Below are positions 50,311-64,000 of a stretch of DNA of 64,000 nucleotides, piece after piece. The notes under the pieces were generated by a model, which did no database searches, had not been told where the DNA came from, and saw only the letters and a program-made list of their open reading frames with translations. How positions within the stretch are numbered: the stretch's first letter is position 1; every line of letters starts with the position of its first letter. Position numbers and translations under genes: made by a program. This stretch comes from Rhodanobacteraceae bacterium (lineage in GTDB: Bacteria; Pseudomonadota; Gammaproteobacteria; Xanthomonadales; Rhodanobacteraceae), in the NCBI GenBank assembly GCA_016790075.1, contig JAEUPP010000043.1, positions 52,486 through 116,485 on the forward strand, given 5' to 3'.

Positions 50311-53220
50311 TCAGTTGCAGATATCGATACGGACGTTATCGATTTCCATGCCGTTCGGTGCTGCGGCGGCAGTGTTGCTGTCGCTGCTGGCGCGGAAACG
50401 CAGCTGTATCGTCTGGCCGGCCATATCGTCCAGGTCAACGATGGAGCGTTTCGCTGCGGTGCCGGCGGCCTGATGGCACCAGCCCTGACGCCCCGCCAGT
50501 GGTGCGCCGGACGAGATCGTGCCGTCGTAGGAGTCCGTAAAGAAGCGGCCTGCGAGCAGCTGGGTGAAGCTGCCGGCGCCGATCTTTGCTTCCAGCGAGC
50601 CTGCATCCCAGCAGCCGGTAGCGCCGTCGGTTTCAAAGCTGTGGTAGTTGTCGTAGGACAGGATCACAGCCTGGGCGGCTGGAATCGCGATGCTCGGCGA
50701 CAGCACCGATCGATCGCTGGTGACCGTGTTGTTCGGCACTTTCCAGACGTTGCCGGTGAAACCGGTTGTGCCTGCGATCGGCGTGCCCGACGACCAGGCC
50801 GTGCCACCGGCATCACCCGGTGCGCCGGCAGTCCAGGCCGGTTCAGCACCGCCCTCGAAGCCGTAGGTCACGACATTGCTGAGCGTGGTGCCGGTTGGGC
50901 AGGTGCCCGGTGTTCCGGTGGTGAACGAGAACACGCTGGAGTTCGCGCCGTTGCCGCAGTAGTTGGTCGCCCGCACGCGCCAGAAATACTGAGTGGTCGA
51001 GGCCAGCGTGGTATCGACTGTCCAGTTGTTCGTGGTCACGGTGCTGGATGCAACGATGTTCGTGAAGCCCGCGTCGGTGGCCACTTCGACCCGATACGAC
51101 AGCGCACCCGACACAGCCGACCAGGTCAGCAGCGGACGTACCTTGACGCCCGTCGCGCCGAGGGCGGGGGCGGTCAGCGTGGATGCTGCCGGTGGCAGTG
51201 CAGAGACGCCGAGCTCCAGATTGAGTGAGCTTGAGCTTGCGCCGCCGGTGCCGCTGACGTTGATCAGGTATTCGCCGGTTGCCGCGCCACGACCGCCAAC
51301 TAGGGTGAACAGGCTGGAACCTGGCGTGGGGTTGATCGGATTGAGCGAGAAGCTCGGTGTGGTGCCGCCCGGCATGCCGGTCGGGGTCAAGGTGACCGAC
51401 GCATTGAAGCCGCCGACGGTGCCGGCGAGCAGATCCCAGGACGGATCCGGACCAGGATTCGCACCACACACTTCAATCCGGCGCGGGGTCTGGCTCACGA
51501 GCTTGAAGGCGGGCAGGCCGCATTCGTTGAACCTGAAGCTGCAGATGCGGGTGGACCACTGGTTCGTGCTCGTGGTCGGGTAGTACTCACCCGTGAACCA
51601 GAAGGTGCAATCGTCCGTCGGATCGACACTCATCGAGGTGTAGTCGCCCCAGCGGCCGCGGCCGCTGAACGATCCGGTCTGCGACCCCGTCGTCGCCGGC
51701 GTGCAGGCCTGTTCGTCACGCAGCGTGCCGTCAGGATCAGTCAGAGTGCGGCCGTTGATCATCAGGCGTGGATTGATGGCCGCCGACGATACGTTGTAGC
51801 CGACACCGATATTGCCGCCCTTGTCGATGGCGATACCACCCATCCAGCGCGTGTTGGTATCCGGGGTGTAGACGCCTTCATCGACAATGGCGCGCTGCAG
51901 CGGTGCGTTCGCCGAGGCCTGGTAACCGTCATTGAAGATGTTGTCGAAGCGCTGGTTGACCTGAGAAAGATCGAAGTGAGTCCAGCGTATGCCGCCCTGG
52001 TTGCTGGGGCCGAGTACGCCATGGTTCACGACCAGTGAGAGGCGAGTCGGCGAGCCGGCTGGGAACACACGGGCTGCGGCACGGTACATGATGTGCGTGC
52101 CGAAGGCGTCCAGTGGTACCGAGGAACCGAGTTGCGGCACGGTTGAGTAATTCGGCACAAATGGCGTTTCGGAGGCGATGCGCTGCGGCGTGCTGCTCAG
52201 GGTTGTGCTTGCCGGAGTCGTCCAGTTGATGCACATGTCCCAGAACAAATATTCCGAGGTTGCAGCATCAAAGTGGATGAACGGGGCGCAACTGCCCGGT
52301 TTCGCGTGCAACGTGCCATCCAGATGTACCGGCTCTGCGCCGTAGGCATCAATACCGGGGAAACGCACGATACCAACCTGAGCCGCCGGTGCGCCGGCCA
52401 GCATCTTGTCGCGCTCGACGGCGATATAAGCGGCGCCGAGGAAGGCCTGGGTCGCGTTGTTGAATTCGTGGGTGACGATGGTGTACGCGTTCTGCCGGCC
52501 AGTTTCGTCAGTCCAGACGCCGATATGCGGATAGTCGCCGAACACCTGCACCGGTGTGGTCGGCCAGACGAATTCATAGCGGTAGTAAGTGCCGAGCGGG
52601 TCGGACGTGGTCGAGATCGCGAAGCACTGGCTGGAGTTCGCGCCTGTCGTGAACTGCGACATGACCCAGCGCTGTGCGCGATCGTCCCAGATCGCCAGCG
52701 GATCGCCCGAGTTCGTGGTCTGGCATTTGCCGCCGAAGCCCGCGAAGAAGGAGTTGCCGGCGGTGGGGCCATTGATGCGTGCGCCGGTGGACTTGTTGAA
52801 AATCGCCCAGCTCGTATTGATCCACTGGATGAAATGCGTAGGGCTTACATCGCCGTTGGTATCCGGTGGTACGCCGCCGCCGCCCACACCAAGGGAAAGG
52901 CCATCGGCTGCCACTATGGTCGAGGGCGCCGGAGTACCGCTAGGCGAGGTCTGCGTGTTGCGCGCGCTCAGGCTGCGCATGAACTCGCCCATGTAGGCCT
53001 GGCTGGGCTTGACGAACTGGTTCGGGACTACGTAGACGTCCTGGCCGTCGGCGCCTACACGCGGCGCAGGATAGGCGGCAATAATGTCGCGCATAGGCGG
53101 GGAAACGTCGGAACGGACCGCGTGACCGACTACCACGCCGCCCGCAGCATTAACTGCCGGCGAAACTAATGTGGCGAAACCGGTCGCGACAGCCAAAACA
53201 AGGCCGTGACGAAGAAACAT
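50311..53220 (-). CDS. Large secreted protein with fibronectin III-like and C-terminal lectin/MAM-like domains
   Basis: This 969-residue protein has a signal peptide (1 to about 26, SPAVNAAGG). Residues ~110-560 form a repetitive beta-rich domain (GGGGVPPDTNGDVSPTHFIQ, RWVMSQFTTG, GDYPHIGVWTD) that looks like a propeller. A fibronectin type III-like unit follows (about 680-770; VKVRPLLTWSAVSGALSYRV). The C-terminal ~190 residues (YGFEGG to NGMEIDNVRIDIC) resemble the MAM/jelly-roll domain found at the end of immune-inhibitor-A-type proteins. No protease motif is visible. A GGGGGG ribosome site precedes the ATG. The function is unknown; an adhesive or substrate-binding exoprotein is inferred. 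Confidence 0.8.
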   Translation of the reverse strand: MFLRHGLVLAVATGFATLVSPAVNAAGGVVVGHAVRSDVSPPMRDIIAAYPAPRVGADGQDVYVVPNQFVKPSQAYMGEFMRSLSARNTQTSPSGTPAPSTIVAADGLSLGVGGGGVPPDTNGDVSPTHFIQWINTSWAIFNKSTGARINGPTAGNSFFAGFGGKCQTTNSGDPLAIWDDRAQRWVMSQFTTGANSSQCFAISTTSDPLGTYYRYEFVWPTTPVQVFGDYPHIGVWTDETGRQNAYTIVTHEFNNATQAFLGAAYIAVERDKMLAGAPAAQVGIVRFPGIDAYGAEPVHLDGTLHAKPGSCAPFIHFDAATSEYLFWDMCINWTTPASTTLSSTPQRIASETPFVPNYSTVPQLGSSVPLDAFGTHIMYRAAARVFPAGSPTRLSLVVNHGVLGPSNQGGIRWTHFDLSQVNQRFDNIFNDGYQASANAPLQRAIVDEGVYTPDTNTRWMGGIAIDKGGNIGVGYNVSSAAINPRLMINGRTLTDPDGTLRDEQACTPATTGSQTGSFSGRGRWGDYTSMSVDPTDDCTFWFTGEYYPTTSTNQWSTRICSFRFNECGLPAFKLVSQTPRRIEVCGANPGPDPSWDLLAGTVGGFNASVTLTPTGMPGGTTPSFSLNPINPTPGSSLFTLVGGRGAATGEYLINVSGTGGASSSSLNLELGVSALPPAASTLTAPALGATGVKVRPLLTWSAVSGALSYRVEVATDAGFTNIVASSTVTTNNWTVDTTLASTTQYFWRVRATNYCGNGANSSVFSFTTGTPGTCPTGTTLSNVVTYGFEGGAEPAWTAGAPGDAGGTAWSSGTPIAGTTGFTGNVWKVPNNTVTSDRSVLSPSIAIPAAQAVILSYDNYHSFETDGATGCWDAGSLEAKIGAGSFTQLLAGRFFTDSYDGTISSGAPLAGRQGWCHQAAGTAAKRSIVDLDDMAGQTIQLRFRASSDSNTAAAAPNGMEIDNVRIDICN

Positions 53221-54470: not shown

Positions 54471-54506
54471 CGCCGACATAATATGTCTTGACATGTTATG
54501 TCGGCG
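54471..54506. promoter_or_regulatory. 36-bp palindrome of two tandem 13-bp boxes
   Basis: The site reads CGCC, GACATAATATGTC, TT, GACATGTTATGTC, GGCG. Of 18 possible base pairs 16 match; only T54482/G54495 and the central TT fail. Each 13-bp box is itself palindromic (GACAT...ATGTC). It lies between divergent genes and covers a consensus -35 (TTGACA, 54488-54493). This is most likely a double operator. Confidence 0.75.
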
Positions 54507-54517
54507 GGTCGTAGCGT
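54488..54517 (+). promoter_or_regulatory. Possible promoter of the psp/flotillin operon
   Basis: TTGACA at 54488-54493 is a perfect -35 box. The best -10 is TAGCGT (54512-54517) after 18 bases, which is weak and suggests a need for activation. The -35 lies within the palindrome. Confidence 0.4.
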
Positions 54518-54559
54518 TCGATCCCGCGTATACCCCAGGTGCGTCCCGGAGGAGGGGCT

Positions 54560-54985
54560 ATGGCAAGCCGGCGTCGACTGACCAGCCTGATCAAGGCCGC
54601 CGTGCCGCTGTTGCGGCGCCAGATCCTGGTTGAGGTCATCGATGTCGTACCGATTGCCGGTGACGTTCCCGTCATCGAGATCGCATTTCCAGGCAGTGAA
54701 CGCCTGCCTATCTATGTCACCGATGCGGGCAGCCAGCTGCTCTGTATCAGCTATCTCTGGCGCGACGCCGATGTGAAGCCGCGGCTGCGCGCCAAACTCC
54801 TGGAGACGCTGCTGGATCTGAATCCCAGCGTCCCGCTTTCGGCGTTCGGCCGCATAGGTGAGCATTTCGTGCTGGTCGGCGCCCTGAATCCTGCGGCTTC
54901 GGCTGCGGACATGGCGCTGGAGCTCGCCACGCTTGGCGACAACGGCCGCGACGCACTCGGCGCGCTTGCCGAATTCCTGGTCTGA
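54560..54985 (+). CDS. YjfI-like DUF2170 family protein
   Basis: The 141-residue cytoplasmic protein has the DUF2170 pattern: a basic start, PVIEIAFPGSERLPIYVTDAGSQLLCISYLW in its central sheet (seen as strands about 35-70), then LLETLLDLNPSVPLSAFGRIGEHFVLVGAL and an acidic helical C-terminus. In E. coli the homologue yjfI precedes yjfJ, a PspA-type gene, and the same order holds here. No biochemical function is established. ATG at 54560 follows a very strong GGAGGAGGGG ribosome site. Confidence 0.85.
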   Translation: MASRRRLTSLIKAAVPLLRRQILVEVIDVVPIAGDVPVIEIAFPGSERLPIYVTDAGSQLLCISYLWRDADVKPRLRAKLLETLLDLNPSVPLSAFGRIGEHFVLVGALNPAASAADMALELATLGDNGRDALGALAEFLV

Positions 54986-54993
54986 GGTGCGTG

Positions 54994-55623
54994 ATGGCCT
55001 GGTGGAATGACATCCGCAACATGCTCAAGCAGGAGCTTGGCGCTACCGCGGCGGCTGGCGCGGATCTGCCCGAGCCGTCCGAACCCCTGCGTCAGGCGCA
55101 ACGACTGCTGCAGCGTACCGCGCGCGAGCTCGCCCAGGCGCGCGCCCGCGCGGATGAAGTCCGGCGGCGGCTGGTGCGTGCACAAGCCAGGCTCGAGGCG
55201 CTCACGCGGGCCCCGCAATCACATCCGCGTTACCGCGAGCGGCTGATCGAACTCGCCCGCGCGATCGCGCGCGACACTGATCTTGCCGGCAGCTTCCAGG
55301 CGCACCTGAGCCAGCTCGATCTGCTGCACGATCAGGTCAACCGTCAGTTGCGCGAACTCGACCATGACGTGTCGATGGCACGCACGGCCAGCGTGATCGG
55401 CCAGGCTACTCAGGCAGTGGTGCAAGCCGCGCCGCGCCGCGCCACAGCAGCAAAACGCGTACCGGCAGCCGGGCCGAAAACGACTGCGCGCACCTCGCCC
55501 AGGACTACCGCCGGCCAGTCGCCCGTCAAACCCGTATTTCGCCGCGCTCGCGCGCCGCGCGTGATCGAAACACTGCAGCAGCTACCGCGGCAGCGGCCGG
55601 GACCGGACGCGCATGAAGACTGA
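54994..55623 (+). CDS. PspA/IM30-like coiled-coil protein
   Basis: The 209-residue protein begins MAWWNDIRNMLKQELG, an amphipathic start like the membrane-binding helix of PspA (YjfJ). Residues ~28-135 are almost all helical with heptads (LRQAQRLLQRTARELAQARA, VRRRLVRAQARLEAL, LDLLHDQVNRQLREL). The C-terminal ~70 residues are Pro/Arg/Thr-rich and probably disordered, which is unusual. PspA proteins coat and repair stressed inner membranes. ATG at 54994 has GAGG six bases upstream; it follows the yjfI-like gene by eight bases. Confidence 0.75.
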   Translation: MAWWNDIRNMLKQELGATAAAGADLPEPSEPLRQAQRLLQRTARELAQARARADEVRRRLVRAQARLEALTRAPQSHPRYRERLIELARAIARDTDLAGSFQAHLSQLDLLHDQVNRQLRELDHDVSMARTASVIGQATQAVVQAAPRRATAAKRVPAAGPKTTARTSPRTTAGQSPVKPVFRRARAPRVIETLQQLPRQRPGPDAHED

Positions 55624-55969
55624 GTTGCCAAGCCGCTGGCGATCATCACAACCGGCGCTGCGTGCGGTGCAGGTCGCGTTTGACGTTTCCGAAGCGGTAC
55701 TACAGGCGATCCGCGCTGCAGCTTACGAGGCGAATCTGTCGAACTCCGATCAGGTACGTGTGGTGTTAGGCCTGCCGTTGCTGCGCCAGGCCAAGCGTCC
55801 GCGTCTTACGGTCAGCCTGAGCGAGGACGACTACCGGCTGCTGGGGCTGCGCTACGAACTTGAGCCGAACGATCATCTCGCGATCAAGGAGCGTGTTGGT
55901 GCCGCACTGGTTGCATTCGCTGAAAAAAGGCATAAGTCGCGAACTGGAAAAAGGAGTTCAAAGCCGTGA
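55613..55969 (+). CDS. Small operon protein with two ribbon-helix-helix-like motifs
   Basis: The 118-residue basic protein overlaps the preceding gene by 11 bases and the next by 4 (GTGA), so it is translated as part of the operon. I do not recognise the family. It seems to contain two similar halves: strand VQVAFDVSE, helix, LSNSDQVRVVLGL (about 20-55), and strand RLTVSLSE, helix, PNDHLAIKERVGAAL (about 65-102). This strand-helix-helix plan resembles ribbon-helix-helix DNA-binding proteins. A lysine/arginine-rich tail (KRHKSRTGKRSSK) follows. A regulator binding the tandem boxes upstream is possible but unproven. Confidence 0.6.
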   Translation: MKTELPSRWRSSQPALRAVQVAFDVSEAVLQAIRAAAYEANLSNSDQVRVVLGLPLLRQAKRPRLTVSLSEDDYRLLGLRYELEPNDHLAIKERVGAALVAFAEKRHKSRTGKRSSKP

Positions 55970-56589
55970 GCTTCCTCGCTCTGCTGACGAGTTATCCGGG
56001 TCTGCTGCCAAGCATTCTCATCGGTGTGCTGCTGGTGTTCTGGCTGCTGACCATCGTTGGCCTGCTCGACCTGGACAACTTTGGCCCCGACTGGCTCGGC
56101 GGCAGCGACGATGCCGACGTCGATGGCCTGCCGGAAATGCTGCTCACCCTCGGCCTGGACCGGCTGCCGTTCTCCATCGTCATCAGCGGGGTCGCGTTCT
56201 ACTGGTGGCTGCTGACGATGCTGGCCGCAGCGCTGCTGCTGCCTATCCTGCCGTTGCCGGTCTGGCTGAGCGGGACACTGGTCCTGCTGGTAGCACTGGT
56301 TGCCGCGGTGCTGCTGGCTTCGGTATCGCTGCGGCCGCTGAAACCCGTGTTCATCGTGCAGGAAAATGTGACGCGTGAATCCGCGATCGGGCGCCGCTGC
56401 CGCATTCTGACCCTGAGTGTGGAAGACAACTTTGGTCAGGCCGAAGTCGAGATGGGCAGCGGCACACGGCTGACGCTGCAGGTTTACGCCGCGCAGCCCA
56501 ACCGCCTCGCGCGCGACTCGGCGGCCGTCGTGCTCGAATTCGACCCGCAGCGCAAACGCTATCTTGTAGCCGAACTGGAATCCGTCTGA
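55966..56589 (+). CDS. YqiJ-like membrane protein with C-terminal OB-fold (NfeD-type) domain
   Basis: The 207-residue protein starts at GTG in a 4-base overlap. It has membrane spans at about 11-33, 66-85 and 88-112 with an acidic loop between the first two (DNFGPDWLGGSDDADVDGL). The C-terminal ~80 residues (VFIVQENVTRESAIGRRCRI to KRYLVAELESV) are beta-rich and fit the OB-fold of YqiJ/NfeD proteins, including the GRRCRILTLSV segment. Such proteins are encoded beside flotillins and act with them in membrane domains. The next gene is a flotillin. Confidence 0.85.
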   Translation: MSFLALLTSYPGLLPSILIGVLLVFWLLTIVGLLDLDNFGPDWLGGSDDADVDGLPEMLLTLGLDRLPFSIVISGVAFYWWLLTMLAAALLLPILPLPVWLSGTLVLLVALVAAVLLASVSLRPLKPVFIVQENVTRESAIGRRCRILTLSVEDNFGQAEVEMGSGTRLTLQVYAAQPNRLARDSAAVVLEFDPQRKRYLVAELESV

Positions 56590-56736
56590 AGCCCAGGAAA
56601 CCTGCGCTGAACTGGAGCGATCCCTAGAAAACTTCCGGTGCCGGACAGCGGCGCCACCATACCCGCACCGTCGCCTCGTGTAGCGACGATGTGCAAAACG
56701 CAATGCACGTTTTCCACTTTGCAGCGGAGCGTCACC

Positions 56737-58761
56737 ATGGATATCGCCTTCACTACCTTGCTTGCCGCTATCGGCATTCTGGTCGTGTTTCTGCTTGGCT
56801 TCATGGCCATAGTGGCCAAGTTCTACCAGAAGGTCGACCAGGGCCACGCCATGATCGTCAACACCATGCGTGCCGAGCCTGACGTCACATTCACCGGTCG
56901 GCTGGTGATTCCCATCCTGCACCGGCGTGAAGTCATGGACATCTCGCTCAAGACCATCGAGATCGAACGCATGGGCAAGGAAGGCCTGATCTGCAAGGAC
57001 AACATGCGGGCTGACATCAAGGTCAAGTTCTTCGTGCGCGTGAACAAGACGCGCGAGGACGTGCTCCGCGTGGCGCAGGGCATAGGCTGCGAGCGTGCAA
57101 GCAACCAGGCCACGCTCGAAGATCTGTTCAGCGCAAAATTCTCCGAAGCCCTGAAGACGGTCGGCAAGAACATGGACTTCGTCGATCTGTACGAAGCGCG
57201 CGACCGCTTCCGTGACCAGATCGTGCGCCAGATCGGTGACGAGCTGTCGGGCTATGTGCTCGAGGATGCCGCCATCGACTATCTCGAACAGACGCCTCTG
57301 GAGAAGCTGGACCCACACAATATTCTTGATGCGCAGGGCATCAAGAAGATTACCGAGCTCACCGCCGAGCAGAACATCTTCACCAACGAGCTGCGCCGCA
57401 ACGAGGAAATGCGCATCAAGAAGAAGGACGTGGAAACCGCCGAGGCCGTGCTTGAGCTTGAGCGCCAGAAAGCACATGCGGAGGCGAATCAGCAGCGGGA
57501 AATAGTGATCACCAAGGCGCGCGAGGAAGCTGAAGCCGCCAAGGTCGTGGCAGAGGAACGCGCCAAGTCTGAATCGGCACGCCTGCTGGCTGAGCAGCAG
57601 ATCCTGGTACAGACCGAAAACATGAAACGCGAGGCCGAGGTCGCTGGGAAGAACCGTGAGCGCGCTGTTGCGATCGAGCAGGAAAAAGTAACCCGGGCAC
57701 GTGAACTGGAAACGGTTGATCGCGAACGCGAAGTGACTCTGCAGCGCATCGAGAAGGAAAAGGCGGTCGAAGTGCAGAAAAAGGCGATTGCCGATGTGAT
57801 TCGCGAGCGCATCGTGGTCGAGCGCACCGTCGCCGAGCAGGAGGAAGAGATCAAGAACCTGCGTGCCCTGTCGGAAGCGGACCGCACGAAGAAGTCGACC
57901 ATCGTGCTGGCCGAAGGCCAGGCCGAAGAAAAATTCATCACCGAAGTGAAAGTCGCCCTGGCCGACGAGCAGCGTGCCAAGCACAAGGCGGCGGAGGAGC
58001 TCACCTTGGCCGAGGCGCGGCTGGCCATCGCGAGCAAGACCGCTGAAGGCCGCAAGCGTGAAGCCGAAGGCATGGAAGCCGTCGCGGCGGCGCAAGGGCT
58101 GGCCGAAGCACGGGTTGCACTCGCGCGCGCCGATGCCGCGGAAAAGGAAGGACTGGTTGCCGCCAAGGTGCGGCTGGCCGAGGCCGATGCGATTGCCAAG
58201 CAGGGCGCCGCGAACGCAGACGCCCTGCGCCTCAGGCTGGAAGCCGAGGCCGCCGGCAAGCAGAAACATGGCGAAGCCGAGGCGCAGGCGATCGCCGCGC
58301 GCTTCGCTGCCGAAGCCAGCGGCCTCAAGGACAAGTTCGACGCCATGCAGGCCATGAGCGCCGATACACGCGCGCATGAAGAGCAGCGCATGCAACTCGA
58401 CTACGCCCACGCCCAACGTCTCAAGACCATCGAGGCGAATCAGGCCATAGCGCGCGAGCAGGCCGAGATCCTGTCCAAGGCGCTGGCGGTGGCGAAGATC
58501 GAAATCGTCGGCGGCGATGGCGAATATTTTGAACGCTTCATGCGCAGTCTGAGCCTGGGCAAGGCCATCGACACGACGGTCGACAAGAGTGAGCTGCTGC
58601 GCGTGGCGCTGGCGGATCACAAGGCGGGCAAGCGCGATCTCATCGCCGACGCACGCGAGCTTGTTGCGGCGCTGGGCGGTACGGATTCGGTGCGTGATCT
58701 CTCGCTGGCCTCGCTGGCGCAGAAGTTGTCCTCTCCGGCGCCGCGCGGTGATGGCCAATAA
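56737..58761 (+). CDS. yqiK: Flotillin family (YqiK-type) membrane scaffold protein
   Basis: The 674-residue protein has an N-terminal membrane anchor (about 3-25, FTTLLAAIGILVVFLLGFM), a band-7/SPFH domain (about 30-210: FYQKVDQGHAMIVNT, DNMRADIKVKFFVRVNK) and a long alanine/glutamate-rich coiled coil (about 225-600, many EAEAKA-type heptads) of the flotillin type, then a globular tail. Flotillins form scaffolds in ordered inner-membrane domains. It is longer than E. coli YqiK (about 550 residues). ATG 56737 has GGAG eight bases upstream; the frame opens 33 codons earlier without family sequence. The 147-base gap before it has two small hairpins (56669-56688 and 56695-56713). Confidence 0.93.
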   Translation: MDIAFTTLLAAIGILVVFLLGFMAIVAKFYQKVDQGHAMIVNTMRAEPDVTFTGRLVIPILHRREVMDISLKTIEIERMGKEGLICKDNMRADIKVKFFVRVNKTREDVLRVAQGIGCERASNQATLEDLFSAKFSEALKTVGKNMDFVDLYEARDRFRDQIVRQIGDELSGYVLEDAAIDYLEQTPLEKLDPHNILDAQGIKKITELTAEQNIFTNELRRNEEMRIKKKDVETAEAVLELERQKAHAEANQQREIVITKAREEAEAAKVVAEERAKSESARLLAEQQILVQTENMKREAEVAGKNRERAVAIEQEKVTRARELETVDREREVTLQRIEKEKAVEVQKKAIADVIRERIVVERTVAEQEEEIKNLRALSEADRTKKSTIVLAEGQAEEKFITEVKVALADEQRAKHKAAEELTLAEARLAIASKTAEGRKREAEGMEAVAAAQGLAEARVALARADAAEKEGLVAAKVRLAEADAIAKQGAANADALRLRLEAEAAGKQKHGEAEAQAIAARFAAEASGLKDKFDAMQAMSADTRAHEEQRMQLDYAHAQRLKTIEANQAIAREQAEILSKALAVAKIEIVGGDGEYFERFMRSLSLGKAIDTTVDKSELLRVALADHKAGKRDLIADARELVAALGGTDSVRDLSLASLAQKLSSPAPRGDGQ

Positions 58762-58966
58762 CGGCAGCATCCGTTGCGCCGGGCCGCAAGGCTGGCCGCA
58801 GCCCGTGCCGAGCGTATGCCGGCAAACCGTGGTCAGGGCGCTACCCGCAGCGCAATGACCGACCTGCTCAGGGTGGTTCGCGAGAGCGCTGCCCTGGGTG
58901 ATCGTGCGCTTGCAGCTCAACGTCCATCTGCGCATCGACGCGTCATCGAATGCACAAGGGGTTTCC

Positions 58967-61900
58967 ATGTCGGATTCCGCAACCTTTGAATTGCTGCGCA
59001 AGCGCCTGATTACGTCCGCGCAGGCGCTGAGCACCAAGGCCGAAGCACTGAATGCACGCCGCGTCGAAGCTTACGGCCGCGTGGAAAGCAAGCTCCTCGC
59101 GCGCCTCAGCGCGCGGACCGAGCACAACTGCGTTGCACGCGACATCGTACGGGTGGGCGAACTGCTGCTGTTCGGCTACAACGTCTTTATCGGGCTCAAG
59201 AAAGATACCGCTGTCAGCGATGTGTTCTGCCTCTACCGGCTTGCTGCCGGCGATGACAGCGCCGAGCTCGAACCGGTGCCACTGGCGGATTCCTTTCTCG
59301 CCGATCCGCGTTTCGTCGCGGACTTCCGCGAACTGTTTACCTACTACCGCTCCACCACGCTGGACCAGCTACGCGTACTGGACGAACGCCTGCTGCTGGT
59401 ATTCCGCACCGGCTCGCAGGTAGGCGACAAGCGTGTATTCCGGTTCGCCATTGCACGCGACGGCAAGCTCAGCTACCTCGACAACCGCGGCGAGCGCGAT
59501 CACGTATTGCCGCCCAGTCATGATTTTGAATGGGTGCCGGTCACCCGCGAGCACTACGTGCTCGGCCGTCATCCGCATATCAACGTACTCGATACGGTAT
59601 TCGTGGAAACGCTGGCCGGTGATCTCACTGTCAAGATCGAGAACAACACCGAGACGGGGCTCGGTGTGTACAGTGAACCGGTCGAGGACAAGAACCAGTC
59701 GCTTGCCGACGCCGACATCGCCTACGCCGACCTGCGCAGCCTGATCCTGTTGCGCGTGCGGCCCTACCGCGAAGATACGGTGCGTTATCTGGTGTTCAAC
59801 CGGCGCCTGAAGTCGGTGACGCGCATCGACGAGATCGGCGCCTCGTGCATGCAGCTGCCTGAGGACCACGGCATCGTATTTCCCGGCGGCTATTACCTTG
59901 AGTCCGGCGACTTCAAGCGTTTCGCCGATCTCGGGCACGATTTTTCGACCTATCGCATCAAGCGTGTCGTCAGGGCGCCCAGTGGCGAGGACATGCTGTA
60001 TGTGTTTTACGAAGCACAGGCCGGCGCCTATGCGCTGCTTTCCTACCATCTGATCGATCGCAGCATGAGCCAGCCCTTGCTGGGCAATGGCTACGCGCGT
60101 TTTGTCGACGGACGCATACTGCTGGCTACGCCCGAGGCGGCCGAACAGGCTTCGCGCCTGCATACCATGCAGCTCTGGCGTACGCCGTTCGCCTTCGACG
60201 ACTACGCCAGCGCGCAGCCGCGCGTGGCGGGCCTGCTGGGACGGCTGGGCAATGCCAGCGTGGTACGTGCGCTCGCTGATCTGCGCGAGCTGCGCCGGCT
60301 GGCCGAGGACGCTGGCAGCCGCGGCGCCTATGAACGCCTGCTGCGGCTGGCCGCGCGCTGCACCGATGCCTACCCGTGGCTGGCCGAAGCTGAGGCCGGT
60401 GATATCGGCAGCGAAGTAGCGATCCTGGCCCGCAGCGGTCGCGAGGCGCTGAATGCTTATGAACAGCTTGCCCAGGCGCAGACGGCAGGGCGCCAGCTTG
60501 TTGCGGATGCGGAGCGCAGCGTTGCCGAGCAGCTGTCGCGCGTCGCAAGTCTGCTGTGGCAGAAGCCCGAGGACTTTACCGAGGCAATCCGACAGCTCAA
60601 GCGCAAGCGCGGCGAACTGGCCGTGTTGTCCGAACAGCCACACACCGATTCCTCGGCGCTCAATGCGCTTGATGCGCGTCTGCGTGAAGAACTCGACCGT
60701 ATCGGCGCCCGTGCGCTCAAATTCTTTGCCGAGCCGGCGGCGTTCGCGAGCCTGCGCCAGGGGCTGGCTGAGAGTGCTGTCACGGTGGAGCAGGCGCGTA
60801 CGACGGCAGCACTGATGCCGGTTGCGGAACGTCTTGATGCGTTGGCGGAATCGCTGGATGGGCTGTCGGAACTGGTGGCGAGTTTCGAGCGCAGCGATGC
60901 GCAGCAACGCGCCGCGCTGCTGGGTGAGACGGCGCAGCTCTATGGCGAGGTCAATCGTCTGCGTGCCCTGTTGCGCACGCGCCGCGACGCGCTGCTGGTG
61001 CAGGAACAGGGGCTGGAATTCGGCGCACAACTGACCGTACTGGAGCAGTCCGTACTGAACCTCAGTGGCCGCTGTGATACGCCCGAAGGCGCGGATGCCG
61101 CGCTGGCGCAGATTCTCAGCCAGATCGAACAACTGGAAGCGCGGTTTGGCGAGCAGCCTGACTTTCTGCTCGAACTCACCACGCGCCGCGAAAGCGTGCT
61201 GGAGGTGTTTGCCGCACGGCGCGAGCAGATCGCCGGTCAGCGCGAGCGGCGTGCACAGGCGCTGCGGGAAGCCGTGGCCCGTGTGCTTGACGGTGTGCCG
61301 CGGCGCATCACACGCATTGCGACGGCTGAAGAACTGCAGGCGTTTTTCGCCGGCGACACGCTGCTGGAACGGGCGCGGCAGCAACTGGATGAACTGCGCG
61401 GTATCGGCCAGACCGTGGCCGCCGATGAACTCAGCGGGCGCTTGCGTGCACTCAAGGATGCCGGCCTGCGCGATTTGCGCGACCGCAACGAGCTGGGCGC
61501 GAGTACCGAGGCGCTGGCGTTAGGAGCGCATCGCTTCACCATCGAGCGCGGTGTGCTCGACCTGGCTTTGCTGCACGACGACAGCGGACTCACGTTCCAG
61601 CTCACCGGCACGGATTACCGGCGCCGTCTGGCCGATCCTCGAGCGGAAGCTTTCCGCGCCGTGTGGGGCCAGACACTGCCGAACGAAACCGCCGAGGTCT
61701 ATCGCGCCGAGTTTCTCGCCGCGCAACTCTGGTGGCGGCTCGAAGCGGGTGACGCGGCGTTACACGATGCCCTGCGCGCGGCGGATCCGCAACCGCTGGC
61801 TGATCTCGTCGCCCAGGAAGCACAGCGCCGGCCGGCCGAGGATTATCAGCGTGGCGTGCACGACGCTGATGCCGCGGCCATACTGCGCGAGGTCGCACGC

Positions 61901-64000
61901 CTCGCTGCGGCGGCCGGCGAACTGCGCGTGCCGGTGGTCGCGCGTGTGCTCGCGCAGGTCTGGTACGGAGAGCAGGGTGAACAGGAGCGGGCGTTGCTGC
62001 GCGCCCATGCCGCCGGATTGCATTGGTTCCTGCAGCGCGGCGAACTGCCGCTGCCGGCCTCCTGGCGCAGTGGTCTGCAGGGCGCGGCGCAGGCTTTCCA
62101 GCTTGAGACTGCATCCGTGGACGCGGCGATGCGTCATCTGGTGGTGAGTCTTGGTGCCGACACGCCACGATTCGCCATGAGTGCCGTCGCGGCAGATCTC
62201 GCCCAGCGTGCTCAGACCGAGCTGCCGCGCAGCGCGTTGGCTGCGCTGCACTCGGAACTGCCGGCGCCGGAACGGCTGCAGCTTGCGGTCCAGTGGTGTC
62301 AGCGGCTTGCCGCGGAGGATGCCGATGCCGCGCTCGAAGCCGGTTGTCTGCTGGTCTTTGCCGAACTGCCGCGCGAGCGCGTCAATGCGGTGCTGCGCAG
62401 CGACGTCAATGCGCTGCGTGGCTCCCATGCGCGCGTGCGCAGCGGCGTGCTTGCGCTACATTTGCCGGAGTTTCTGCAGCGTCTGTCGCGTCATGCGGAA
62501 ACGACCGTACGCGACTGGCAGGCGTTCGCAAAACTGCGTCACGAACTGGTCGAGGCGGAACGCAAGCGTCTCGGTGTCGACCGCTTCCTGGCCAAGCCCA
62601 TGGCGGGCTTCGTGCGCAACCGGCTCATTGACGAAGTCTATCTGCCGCTGATCGGCAACAATCTGGCCAAGCAGATCGGCAGCGCCGGTGACCTGCGCAG
62701 TGATCGCTCGGGTCTGCTGCTGCTGATCTCGCCGCCGGGCTATGGCAAGACCACGCTGATGGAGTACATCGCCCACCGTCTGGGCATGATCTTCGTGCGC
62801 GTGAACGGACCTACGCTAGGCCACGAAATCGTATCGCTTGATCCTGCCGCCGCCTCGCACCGGGGCGCAGCCGAAGAACTGGTGAAACTGAATCTCGGTC
62901 TTGCGATGGGCGTCAACGTGATGCTCTACCTCGACGACATTCAGCACCTGTCGGCCGAATTCCTGCAAAAGTTCATTAGTCTCTCGGATGCGACCCGGCG
63001 CATTGACGCGATCGTCGATGGTGACGCGCGTACGCTGGACCTGCGCGGCAAGCGCTTCGCGCTGGTCATGGCCGGCAATCCATATACCGAATCCGGTGAG
63101 GTGTTCCGCATTCCGGACATGCTCGCCAACCGTGCCGACGTCTATAATCTCGGCGATGTGCTCAGCGGCCGGGAAGCCCTTTTTGCCGACAGCTATATTG
63201 AAAATGCGCTGACCGCGAACGCACTCAGCGCAGCACTGGCAGAGCGGCCGCGCGCGGAAATTCTCAGCGCGCTGCGTGCCGCGCGTGGCGACGGTGAATT
63301 GCCCGGCGAGTTGCCCGGCGGCGTGCAAACTCTGGAATTGCTCAAGCGCATGGTTGCGGTGCGCGATGTGCTCATGCGCGTCAATGCGGCGTACGTGCAG
63401 AGTGCGGCGCAGGACGACGCCTACCGGACCGAGCCTGCGTTCAAGCTGCAGGGCAGCTATCGCAATATGGCCAAGCTCGCGGCGCAGCTGAGTCCCTTGC
63501 TGACGCCAGCCGAGCTCGATGCGCTGATTCGTGATCACTACCGCGGCGAAGCACAGACGCTGGGCGCACGTGCCGAGGAAAACCTGCTGCGTCTGGTACA
63601 GCTGATCGGTGCGCCGGGTGCGGACGAGTCTGCGCGCTGGAACGCGCTGGTCGACAACTTCCGCCGTCTGGTGCGGCAGGGCGGCAAGGACGCGGATGGC
63701 GCGACGCGTATGGCGCAGACCCTGTCCGATATTGCACTGCAGCTGGAGAAACAGGGCGACAACAGCAGAGGCTTGAGTGAAGCGCTGGCCGCGCTCAACG
63801 CATTGAGTGACATCCACGCAGCGCTGCAACGCGAGCCGAGGCTTGAAGCCCCGCCGGTACTCAGCGATGCGCTGACGCGCATGGCCAAAGCGTATGAGGA
63901 AACCCTGGTGCCGCTGGTCTCGGCTCTGCACCACAAGATGACACTCGATCACGACATGTGGGACCAGGTGCGGCATATGCGCACCGGACTCGATGCACTG
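58967..64000 (+). CDS. Giant AAA+ ATPase, DUF3686/'DNA repair ATPase' type (3' end outside window)
   Basis: The frame starts at ATG 58967 (AAGGGG upstream) and stays open for 1678 codons to the window end. The first ~380 residues fit the DUF3686 domain found in proteins named DNA repair ATPase (KKDTAVSDVFCLY, IVFPGGYYLESGDFK). A long helical region (about 400-1230) follows. The AAA+ core has Walker A PPGYGKTTL (1256-1264), Walker B MLYLDD (Asp1323, Asp1324), sensor-1 MAGNPYTES and IPDMLANRAD. It may remodel membrane or protein complexes with the flotillin and PspA-like partners; a direct role in DNA repair is not supported by context. Confidence 0.85.
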   Translation, partial: MSDSATFELLRKRLITSAQALSTKAEALNARRVEAYGRVESKLLARLSARTEHNCVARDIVRVGELLLFGYNVFIGLKKDTAVSDVFCLYRLAAGDDSAELEPVPLADSFLADPRFVADFRELFTYYRSTTLDQLRVLDERLLLVFRTGSQVGDKRVFRFAIARDGKLSYLDNRGERDHVLPPSHDFEWVPVTREHYVLGRHPHINVLDTVFVETLAGDLTVKIENNTETGLGVYSEPVEDKNQSLADADIAYADLRSLILLRVRPYREDTVRYLVFNRRLKSVTRIDEIGASCMQLPEDHGIVFPGGYYLESGDFKRFADLGHDFSTYRIKRVVRAPSGEDMLYVFYEAQAGAYALLSYHLIDRSMSQPLLGNGYARFVDGRILLATPEAAEQASRLHTMQLWRTPFAFDDYASAQPRVAGLLGRLGNASVVRALADLRELRRLAEDAGSRGAYERLLRLAARCTDAYPWLAEAEAGDIGSEVAILARSGREALNAYEQLAQAQTAGRQLVADAERSVAEQLSRVASLLWQKPEDFTEAIRQLKRKRGELAVLSEQPHTDSSALNALDARLREELDRIGARALKFFAEPAAFASLRQGLAESAVTVEQARTTAALMPVAERLDALAESLDGLSELVASFERSDAQQRAALLGETAQLYGEVNRLRALLRTRRDALLVQEQGLEFGAQLTVLEQSVLNLSGRCDTPEGADAALAQILSQIEQLEARFGEQPDFLLELTTRRESVLEVFAARREQIAGQRERRAQALREAVARVLDGVPRRITRIATAEELQAFFAGDTLLERARQQLDELRGIGQTVAADELSGRLRALKDAGLRDLRDRNELGASTEALALGAHRFTIERGVLDLALLHDDSGLTFQLTGTDYRRRLADPRAEAFRAVWGQTLPNETAEVYRAEFLAAQLWWRLEAGDAALHDALRAADPQPLADLVAQEAQRRPAEDYQRGVHDADAAAILREVARLAAAAGELRVPVVARVLAQVWYGEQGEQERALLRAHAAGLHWFLQRGELPLPASWRSGLQGAAQAFQLETASVDAAMRHLVVSLGADTPRFAMSAVAADLAQRAQTELPRSALAALHSELPAPERLQLAVQWCQRLAAEDADAALEAGCLLVFAELPRERVNAVLRSDVNALRGSHARVRSGVLALHLPEFLQRLSRHAETTVRDWQAFAKLRHELVEAERKRLGVDRFLAKPMAGFVRNRLIDEVYLPLIGNNLAKQIGSAGDLRSDRSGLLLLISPPGYGKTTLMEYIAHRLGMIFVRVNGPTLGHEIVSLDPAAASHRGAAEELVKLNLGLAMGVNVMLYLDDIQHLSAEFLQKFISLSDATRRIDAIVDGDARTLDLRGKRFALVMAGNPYTESGEVFRIPDMLANRADVYNLGDVLSGREALFADSYIENALTANALSAALAERPRAEILSALRAARGDGELPGELPGGVQTLELLKRMVAVRDVLMRVNAAYVQSAAQDDAYRTEPAFKLQGSYRNMAKLAAQLSPLLTPAELDALIRDHYRGEAQTLGARAEENLLRLVQLIGAPGADESARWNALVDNFRRLVRQGGKDADGATRMAQTLSDIALQLEKQGDNSRGLSEALAALNALSDIHAALQREPRLEAPPVLSDALTRMAKAYEETLVPLVSALHHKMTLDHDMWDQVRHMRTGLDAL

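What the first reader, a model, noticed from the sequence alone, without database searches (positions are those of the whole stretch)
54471..64000. Extended Psp-type module: YjfI, PspA-like, RHH-like, YqiJ, flotillin and giant AAA+ ATPase in one operon
Five tightly packed genes (gaps or overlaps of 8, -11, -4 bases, then 147) and a sixth 205 bases on combine two systems that are separate in E. coli: the yjfIJ branch (DUF2170 plus PspA-like) and the yqiJK branch (OB-fold membrane protein plus flotillin). A 1678+ residue AAA+ ATPase is added. Parts of this association are known from comparative genomics of phage-shock proteins, but the joint machine and the role of the ATPase are not characterised. 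One reading is that flotillin and YqiJ define a membrane patch, PspA coats it, and the ATPase disassembles the coat.
Basis: partly seen in the sequence, partly recalled or inferred. Interest (0 to 1): 0.75.

Follow-up and report, generated by a model that had tools for sequence, protein, structure and literature searches.

The report
Membrane-stress operon and its regulator
Six packed genes for a known kind of membrane-stress machine carry a shared DNA control site, and its distribution points to a small uncharacterised protein in the operon as the switch for a set of membrane-protection genes.

Summary
In detail: YjfI (DUF2170), a PspA-like protein, a small unknown protein, a YqiJ-like protein, flotillin and a giant DUF3686/AAA+ ATPase form one block in a Tahibacter genome. 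The contig end cuts the ATPase. The association is already in print (Ravi 2024; P. aeruginosa bac operon).

Two things look new. (1) A 28-bp operator, two GACATNNTATGTC palindromes around a TTGACA, precedes yjfI; this genome has no other perfect box. Half-sites precede yjfI in 12 of 12 sampled genomes with gene 3 and 1 of 10 without. In carriers of gene 3, boxes also precede pspA-pspC, NfeD-SPFH, YqiJ-flotillin, M48 (HtpX-like) and NhaA genes. Gene 3 is probably the regulator of a PSP/SPFH regulon that Tahibacter has gathered into one operon. (2) The PspA-like protein keeps helix 0 and the hairpin but lacks helices 4-5, which PspA/ESCRT-III relatives use to polymerise.

All function is inferred from sequence.

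The parts
54475..54502 (.). Operator: two 13-bp palindromes GACATAATATGTC and GACATGTTATGTC, 2 bp apart
   Evidence: 0 expected in shuffles; only perfect boxes in the 5.6-Mb assembly
54488..54517 (+). Promoter-like: TTGACA (54488-54493) inside the operator, 18-bp spacer, TAGCGT (54512-54517); the -10 is weak
   Evidence: read; similar in relatives; the consensus scan reports no promoter here
54560..54985 (+). YjfI/DUF2170, short type (141 aa), CesT/Tir-like chaperone fold by family
   Evidence: (8q8o, E 0.0039); start at ATG 54560 inferred from a GGAGGAGG site
54994..55623 (+). Gene 2: truncated PspA (helix 0 and hairpin, basic disordered linker, short C-terminal helix)
55613..55969 (+). Gene 3: small protein, predicted beta-alpha-alpha twice, candidate DNA-binding regulator of the operator
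55966..56589 (+). YqiJ/NfeD-like membrane protein
   Evidence: by profile; no Pfam hit of its own
56737..58761 (+). Flotillin (Band_7 plus long coiled coil)
58967..64000 (+). Giant ATPase: DUF3686, DUF7902, coiled coil, AAA+ (GYGKTT; VMLYLDD at residue 1318); cut by contig end

Best explanation
This is a Tahibacter form of the known YjfI-PspA-YqiJ-flotillin-AAA+ membrane-stress operon, switched by its own third gene. Gene 3 most likely binds the tandem palindromes over the -35 region and represses the operon until membrane stress relieves it. YjfI and the truncated PspA (membrane helix plus hairpin, no polymerising helices) would act as a membrane-binding chaperone/adaptor pair that senses damage. 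YqiJ and flotillin would form a membrane cage or clamp that holds damaged proteins or lipids, and the ATPase would pull on the clients or remodel the flotillin assembly. Shown by sequence: gene order, operator, link of operator to gene 3, shared operator on scattered PSP and SPFH operons elsewhere, loss of PspA helices 4-5. Inferred: DNA binding and repression by gene 3, sensing, and the ATPase's substrate.
For: Operator: no other perfect box in the assembly, and perfect boxes at one place only in 8 of 8 Tahibacter genomes. Link to gene 3: all 12 gene-3 genomes of 276 also carry DUF2170, which 22 of the 276 have; half-site before yjfI in 12 of 12 genomes with gene 3 and 1 of 10 without, perfect box there in 8 of 12 and 0 of 10. 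In another order, perfect boxes (forward/reverse strand) sum to 114/123 in 24 gene-3 genomes (reversed-pattern control 10/6) and 5/9 in 19 genomes without it (control 3/7). Regulon: 36 of 51 examined site clusters precede yjfI-pspA, lipoprotein-DUF350-spermine synthase, pspA-pspC, SPFH, NfeD-SPFH, YqiJ-flotillin, M48 or NhaA genes; 9 of the 36 are yjfI itself. In G285, YqiJ-flotillin-ATPase and yjfI-pspA lie apart but share the box. Truncated PspA. ATPase goes with flotillin-YqiJ. FloA-NfeD clamp: PMC11222466 (passages). PspA-SPFH link: PMC8581546 (abstract).
Against: No direct evidence of DNA binding. Gene 3 has no Pfam or significant PDB match; its two halves do not align better than shuffles (8 of 100 reach the score); its model is of middling confidence (pLDDT 71.6, five models 51-72). 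The motif was defined after looking at the data, and the genomes are related, so p-values are rough. 4 of 12 carriers have only half-sites before yjfI. 15 of 51 site clusters had no listed target. G647 has gene 3 and no perfect box. G347 and G364 have DUF2170, no gene 3, and 1-2 perfect boxes; the one of G347 precedes an unrelated gene. The -10 is weak. Co-transcription across the 147- and 205-bp gaps is unproven. The ATPase of G285 is split by a stop.
Confidence: 0.6

Rival explanations
1. One reading: flotillin and YqiJ mark a patch, PspA coats it, the ATPase acts like Vps4 and strips the coat.
For: Gene order conserved with a true PspA in other families; Ravi 2024 discusses PspA with AAA+ ATPases as ESCRT-III/Vps4-like.
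Against: Here PspA lacks helices 4-5. The helix-5 contact is called a defining feature of how the superfamily polymerises (PMC8281802, passages). No PspA was recognised in the fetched stretch of 9 of 32 ATPase loci.
Confidence: 0.2
2. YjfI, not gene 3, is the regulator; gene 3 is a passenger.
For: In P. aeruginosa a bacA (DUF2170) mutant accumulates the other Bac proteins 6- to 13-fold (PMC10948618, passages). G452 has short-type YjfI and half-sites but no gene 3 found.
Against: Three other short-type YjfI loci without gene 3 (L081, L082, L084) lack even half-sites, and the two YjfI loci of G386 differ in the box as they differ in gene 3. YjfI may still act as co-regulator.
Confidence: 0.15
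3. The boxes are sites of another factor inherited together with the operon.
For: No DNA-binding test; the gene-3 fold is not established.
Against: Gene 3 was found in 23 genera; 23 of 24 scanned carriers have perfect boxes, many scattered over the genome, while 19 genomes of the same order without it stay near the control.
Confidence: 0.15

Closest known systems
CesT/Tir(DUF2170)-PspA-YqiJ-flotillin-AAA+ operon class (Ravi et al. 2024, PMC11237479)
   Same: Same five gene families in one operon; [quoted passage not shown]
   Different: Gene 3 is not named in that operon class; the PspA is truncated here; no operator or regulon is described in the sections I read (18, 19)
P. aeruginosa bacABCDEF operon (PMC10948618, PMC2587700)
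   Same: DUF2170, PspA-like, short NfeD and flotillin in order, with RT-PCR across six genes
   Different: A sigma-54 site is proposed there, not these boxes; BacE and BacF were not identified or compared here
B. subtilis pspA-ydjGHI
   Same: An SPFH protein ties PspA to the membrane (PMC8581546, abstract)
   Different: Other membrane partners; no ATPase and no such operator known to me (recalled)
Ravi's second group with spermine synthase, DUF350 and sometimes a final RHH gene
   Same: G285, G757, G775 and G759 show this layout and carry gene 3 after yjfI-pspA and one more gene, so gene 3 may be their RHH gene
   Different: Identity of the two was not tested; the regulon is not mentioned in section 19

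Membership tests
Ravi-type PSP/flotillin/AAA+ operon | DUF2170, YqiJ, flotillin and AAA+ with DUF3686 in one operon-like block | tested here: met
   (gene order; co-transcription not tested)
Ravi-type PSP/flotillin/AAA+ operon | beta-propeller in the ATPase | not tested
   the PF12458 match covers the N-terminal part; its fold was not modelled
PspA/IM30 | PF04012 above curated cut-off | tested here: not met
   11.5 against 33.9 bits
PspA/IM30 | amphipathic helix 0 and alpha1-alpha2/3 hairpin | tested here: met
   helices 2-20, 30-72, 78-145; top 7 Foldseek hits are Vipp1 chains, E 0.014-0.057, none under 0.001; hhalign E 4.6e-7 and 8.7e-6 for a single comparison. Amphipathicity itself was not computed
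PspA/IM30 | helices alpha4 and alpha5 | tested here: not met
   residues 149-185 disordered, then one 9-residue helix; alignment
PspA/IM30 | forms rods or rings | not testable with these tools
   needs protein
Ribbon-helix-helix regulators | beta-alpha-alpha fold | tested here: inconclusive
   predicted twice; no significant fold match, best E 0.84; no Pfam
Ribbon-helix-helix regulators | palindromic operator upstream of its own operon | tested here: met
   (co-occurrence only, not binding)

The most novel reading that the evidence does not exclude
Gene 3 is the founder of an undescribed regulator family that runs an envelope-stress regulon in many Gammaproteobacteria, joining canonical PspA-PspC, YjfI-PspA, NfeD-SPFH, YqiJ-flotillin-ATPase, HtpX and NhaA. 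Tahibacter has folded this regulon into one self-controlled operon and turned its PspA from a coat protein into a non-polymerising adaptor.
Probability: 0.55. Interest if true: 0.8.

Novelty: new variant of a known kind. Interest (0 to 1): 0.62.

Why it matters
PSP and flotillin/SPFH systems are usually studied apart. A shared operator on both, tied to one small gene, would show that many bacteria run them as one response and gives a direct genetic handle: delete gene 3 and see what moves. A natural PspA without polymer-forming helices would also test which PspA functions need the coat.

Tried and rejected
Gene 3 as a split-off of the N-terminal extension of long YjfI: profile comparison gave nothing (probability 0.3%); only mutual exclusion remains (long or old-type YjfI genomes 0 of 7 with gene 3, short-type 12 of 15; types assigned by me from the sequences, counts tested). 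Internal repeat in gene 3: not supported. Gene-3 profile against the PDB: best hits are Vps4 MIT domains at E 0.06, not significant, taken as chance. Gene-2 profile against PDB sequences: no PspA. Anti-phage role: PADLOC gave only coiled-coil and P-loop matches, best E 5.9e-4. Conservation across the family: rejected. A first locus count of the half-sites (13 of 13 against 1 of 12) mixed locus and genome labels, so I recounted by genome. A search of the paper library for the operator letters found 9 papers, plant, animal or nematode by title; searches for DUF3686 (0 papers), DUF2170 (3 papers), ribbon-helix-helix/PspA/YjfI (12 papers) and HtpX/NfeD/PspA/regulon/ribbon-helix-helix (32 papers, 20 listed) showed no such regulon in titles or abstract starts. 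Supplementary tables of Ravi 2024 could not be read here. The plasmid collection gave no gene-3 relative.

Full report
1. What is there. The six genes are real and spaced as described. The window ends with its contig, so the ATPase is incomplete. Named relatives place the genome with Tahibacter (T. harae, T. aquaticus, T. caeni). By mechanical ORF calls the gene after the ATPase is on the other strand in L030, L031, L032, L035 and L048, and an ORF on the same strand follows in L033 and L049, so the ATPase is probably, not surely, the last gene.

2. Conservation. DUF3686 was found in 8 of 147 genomes of the family, all in this genus, 1 of 26 genera; in 10 of 369 of the class and 10 of 397 of the phylum. 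Tahibacter-type loci that reach far enough have the same six genes. Two genomes of another family (L093, L094) have exactly the same six, with a true PspA in position 2 (PF04012, 108 and 115 bits). L038, L039, L042, L043 and L089-L092 have a long YjfI, true PspA, YqiJ, flotillin and ATPase without gene 3. A Hymenobacter plasmid shows Tir chaperone, PspA, DUF1449, flotillin-like and ATPase genes. Of 32 ATPase loci (seven duplicates or fragments dropped), 31 have YqiJ and flotillin and 23 have PspA or gene 2 in the fetched stretch; about a third are Tahibacter-type, in L086 the PspA is six genes away, and a diverged PspA could have been missed, for instance in L088. In the ATPase tree of 30 rows the gene-3 operons form one group with support 100 (quick method, midpoint root).

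3. Already in print. Ravi et al. 2024 (PMC11237479, sections 18 and 19 read) describe this operon class. In P. aeruginosa the bacA-F operon was shown by RT-PCR (PMC10948618: passages, section 36 and part 1 of section 37), and deletion of its flotillin has mild effects (PMC13086221, passages). I did not compare P. aeruginosa sequences.

4. Gene 2 is a shortened PspA. Pfam alone would miss it. Its profile, run on 3626 ORFs of the fetched loci, hits besides itself only four ORFs at E up to 0.05, all among the 19 PspA-labelled ones (best 5.5e-7). Profile comparison with 18 PspAs gives E 4.6e-7 (global) and 8.7e-6 (local), for a single comparison, with probabilities of 87 and 83%. The model has helix 0, a hairpin, a disordered basic linker and a short C-terminal helix. 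The seven best PDB folds are Vipp1, though none is below E 0.001. Against this, a PDB sequence search with its profile finds no PspA. Helices 4 and 5 are missing; in Vipp1, helix 5 binds a neighbouring hairpin, called a defining feature of how the superfamily polymerises (PMC8281802, passages). G675 has a second short PspA (188 aa) in a yjfI-PspA-gene 3 setting and G907 seems to. The genome also has a canonical YjfI-PspA pair on C64 and another PspA on C79.

5. The operator. Upstream of yjfI lie GACATAATATGTC and GACATGTTATGTC, with TTGACA starting in the 2-bp spacer. None is expected in shuffled windows. In the whole assembly (95.65% complete) no other perfect box exists; the eight one-mismatch places elsewhere compare with five matches for the reversed pattern. 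All eight Tahibacter genomes have perfect boxes at one place only. For G079 that place is on a separate contig that also carries the start of gene 2.

6. The operator follows gene 3. In 276 class genomes, gene 3 occurs in 12, all among the 22 with DUF2170; in G430 and G379 it lies on another contig than yjfI. All 12 have at least a half-site before a yjfI (8 of 12 a perfect box); of the 10 without gene 3 one has half-sites, G452, of the same family as two carriers and 91% complete. The half-site pattern was set after inspecting four carriers that lack the perfect box. In an order rich in gene 3 (52 of 148 genomes, 14 of 66 genera) I scanned 24 carriers and 19 non-carriers. Perfect boxes, forward/reverse: 114/123 against 5/9; reversed-pattern controls 10/6 and 3/7. 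Non-carriers thus stay near the control, but 8 of 19 have at least one chance-like box, and among DUF2170 genomes without gene 3 so do G347 and G364.

7. The regulon. I examined 51 site clusters, from G285 and thirteen other carriers, asking for genes that start within about 320 bp and up to two genes behind them. 36 precede membrane-stress genes, 9 of them yjfI itself. Pfam confirms representatives: PspA, PspC, Band_7, NfeD, YqiJ_N/YqiJ_OB, Flot, M48 (HtpX by my naming), Na+/H+ antiporter 1 (NhaA), DUF350, spermine synthase. 15 do not, or my gene calling failed there; other neighbours include GlnE (often divergent), an M16 peptidase, an S51 peptidase and an alpha/beta hydrolase. In G285 all seven forward-strand boxes lie before such genes, including the separate YqiJ-flotillin-ATPase operon. 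Single loci of other carriers agree in part: L196, L200, L201, L203, L205 and L206 show such targets; L202, L204 and L208 do not, nor do four boxes with other centres (L180, L182, L187, L197), of which L180 and L197 both precede Tim44-domain genes. In G198 further boxes precede an NhaA and a TraB-family gene, in G386 one lies by CutA1. Seven sites in non-carriers (L185, L188-L191, L199, L207) show no such target.

8. Mechanism. The overlap of the operator with TTGACA suggests repression. FloA-NfeD of S. aureus clamps unfolded proteins without ATP (PMC11222466, passages), and an SPFH protein holds PspA at the membrane in B. subtilis (PMC8581546, abstract). On this basis I favour an ATPase working with flotillin/YqiJ, with YjfI and the hairpin PspA as adaptor and sensor. 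The ATPase's substrate is a guess.

9. Limits. No binding, expression or protein data. The gene-3 fold is unproven. Genomes are related and anonymous. Post hoc p-values are rough.

Noticed in passing
L048:9504-10004; L049:5114-5608; L054:6053-6607: An extra gene just before the ATPase in three Lysobacterales MAGs, each a 23S rRNA intervening-sequence protein family member (PF05635).
   Followed up: partly
G000 contig C64 66947-68043 (L095): A second, canonical YjfI-PspA pair in the same genome without the operator.
   Followed up: partly
L086 (plasmid pQBR103): YqiJ-like, SPFH and ATPase genes follow a PspA-rhomboid-DUF2491-DUF350-DUF1190-glutathionylspermidine synthase set on a plasmid.
   Followed up: no
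L225:6344-6910: A short PspA (188 aa, no Pfam match at 1e-5) ending in a motif between canonical PspA and the Tahibacter form, in a yjfI-PspA-gene 3 operon.
   Followed up: partly
L180:1501 and L197:1501: Boxes with other centres precede Tim44-domain genes in two carrier genera; perhaps further targets.
   Followed up: partly
gene-3 profile (A4): Weak PDB hits to the Vps4 MIT domain (E 0.06), probably chance but curious beside a PspA system.
   Followed up: no
L155:2824; L156:2692; G198 C54:19578: Boxes by CutA1 in G386, at the start of a TraB-family gene and before NhaA in G198.
   Followed up: partly
L037:4917-10010: The ATPase of G285 reads as two ORFs with one TGA between.
   Followed up: no
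annotated plasmid records: The DUF3686 ATPase is labelled 'DNA repair ATPase' in several public records, which its flotillin neighbourhood does not suggest.
   Followed up: no
window 50311-53220 (-): Large ORF of 969 aa with a signal-like start upstream of the block; not examined.
   Followed up: no
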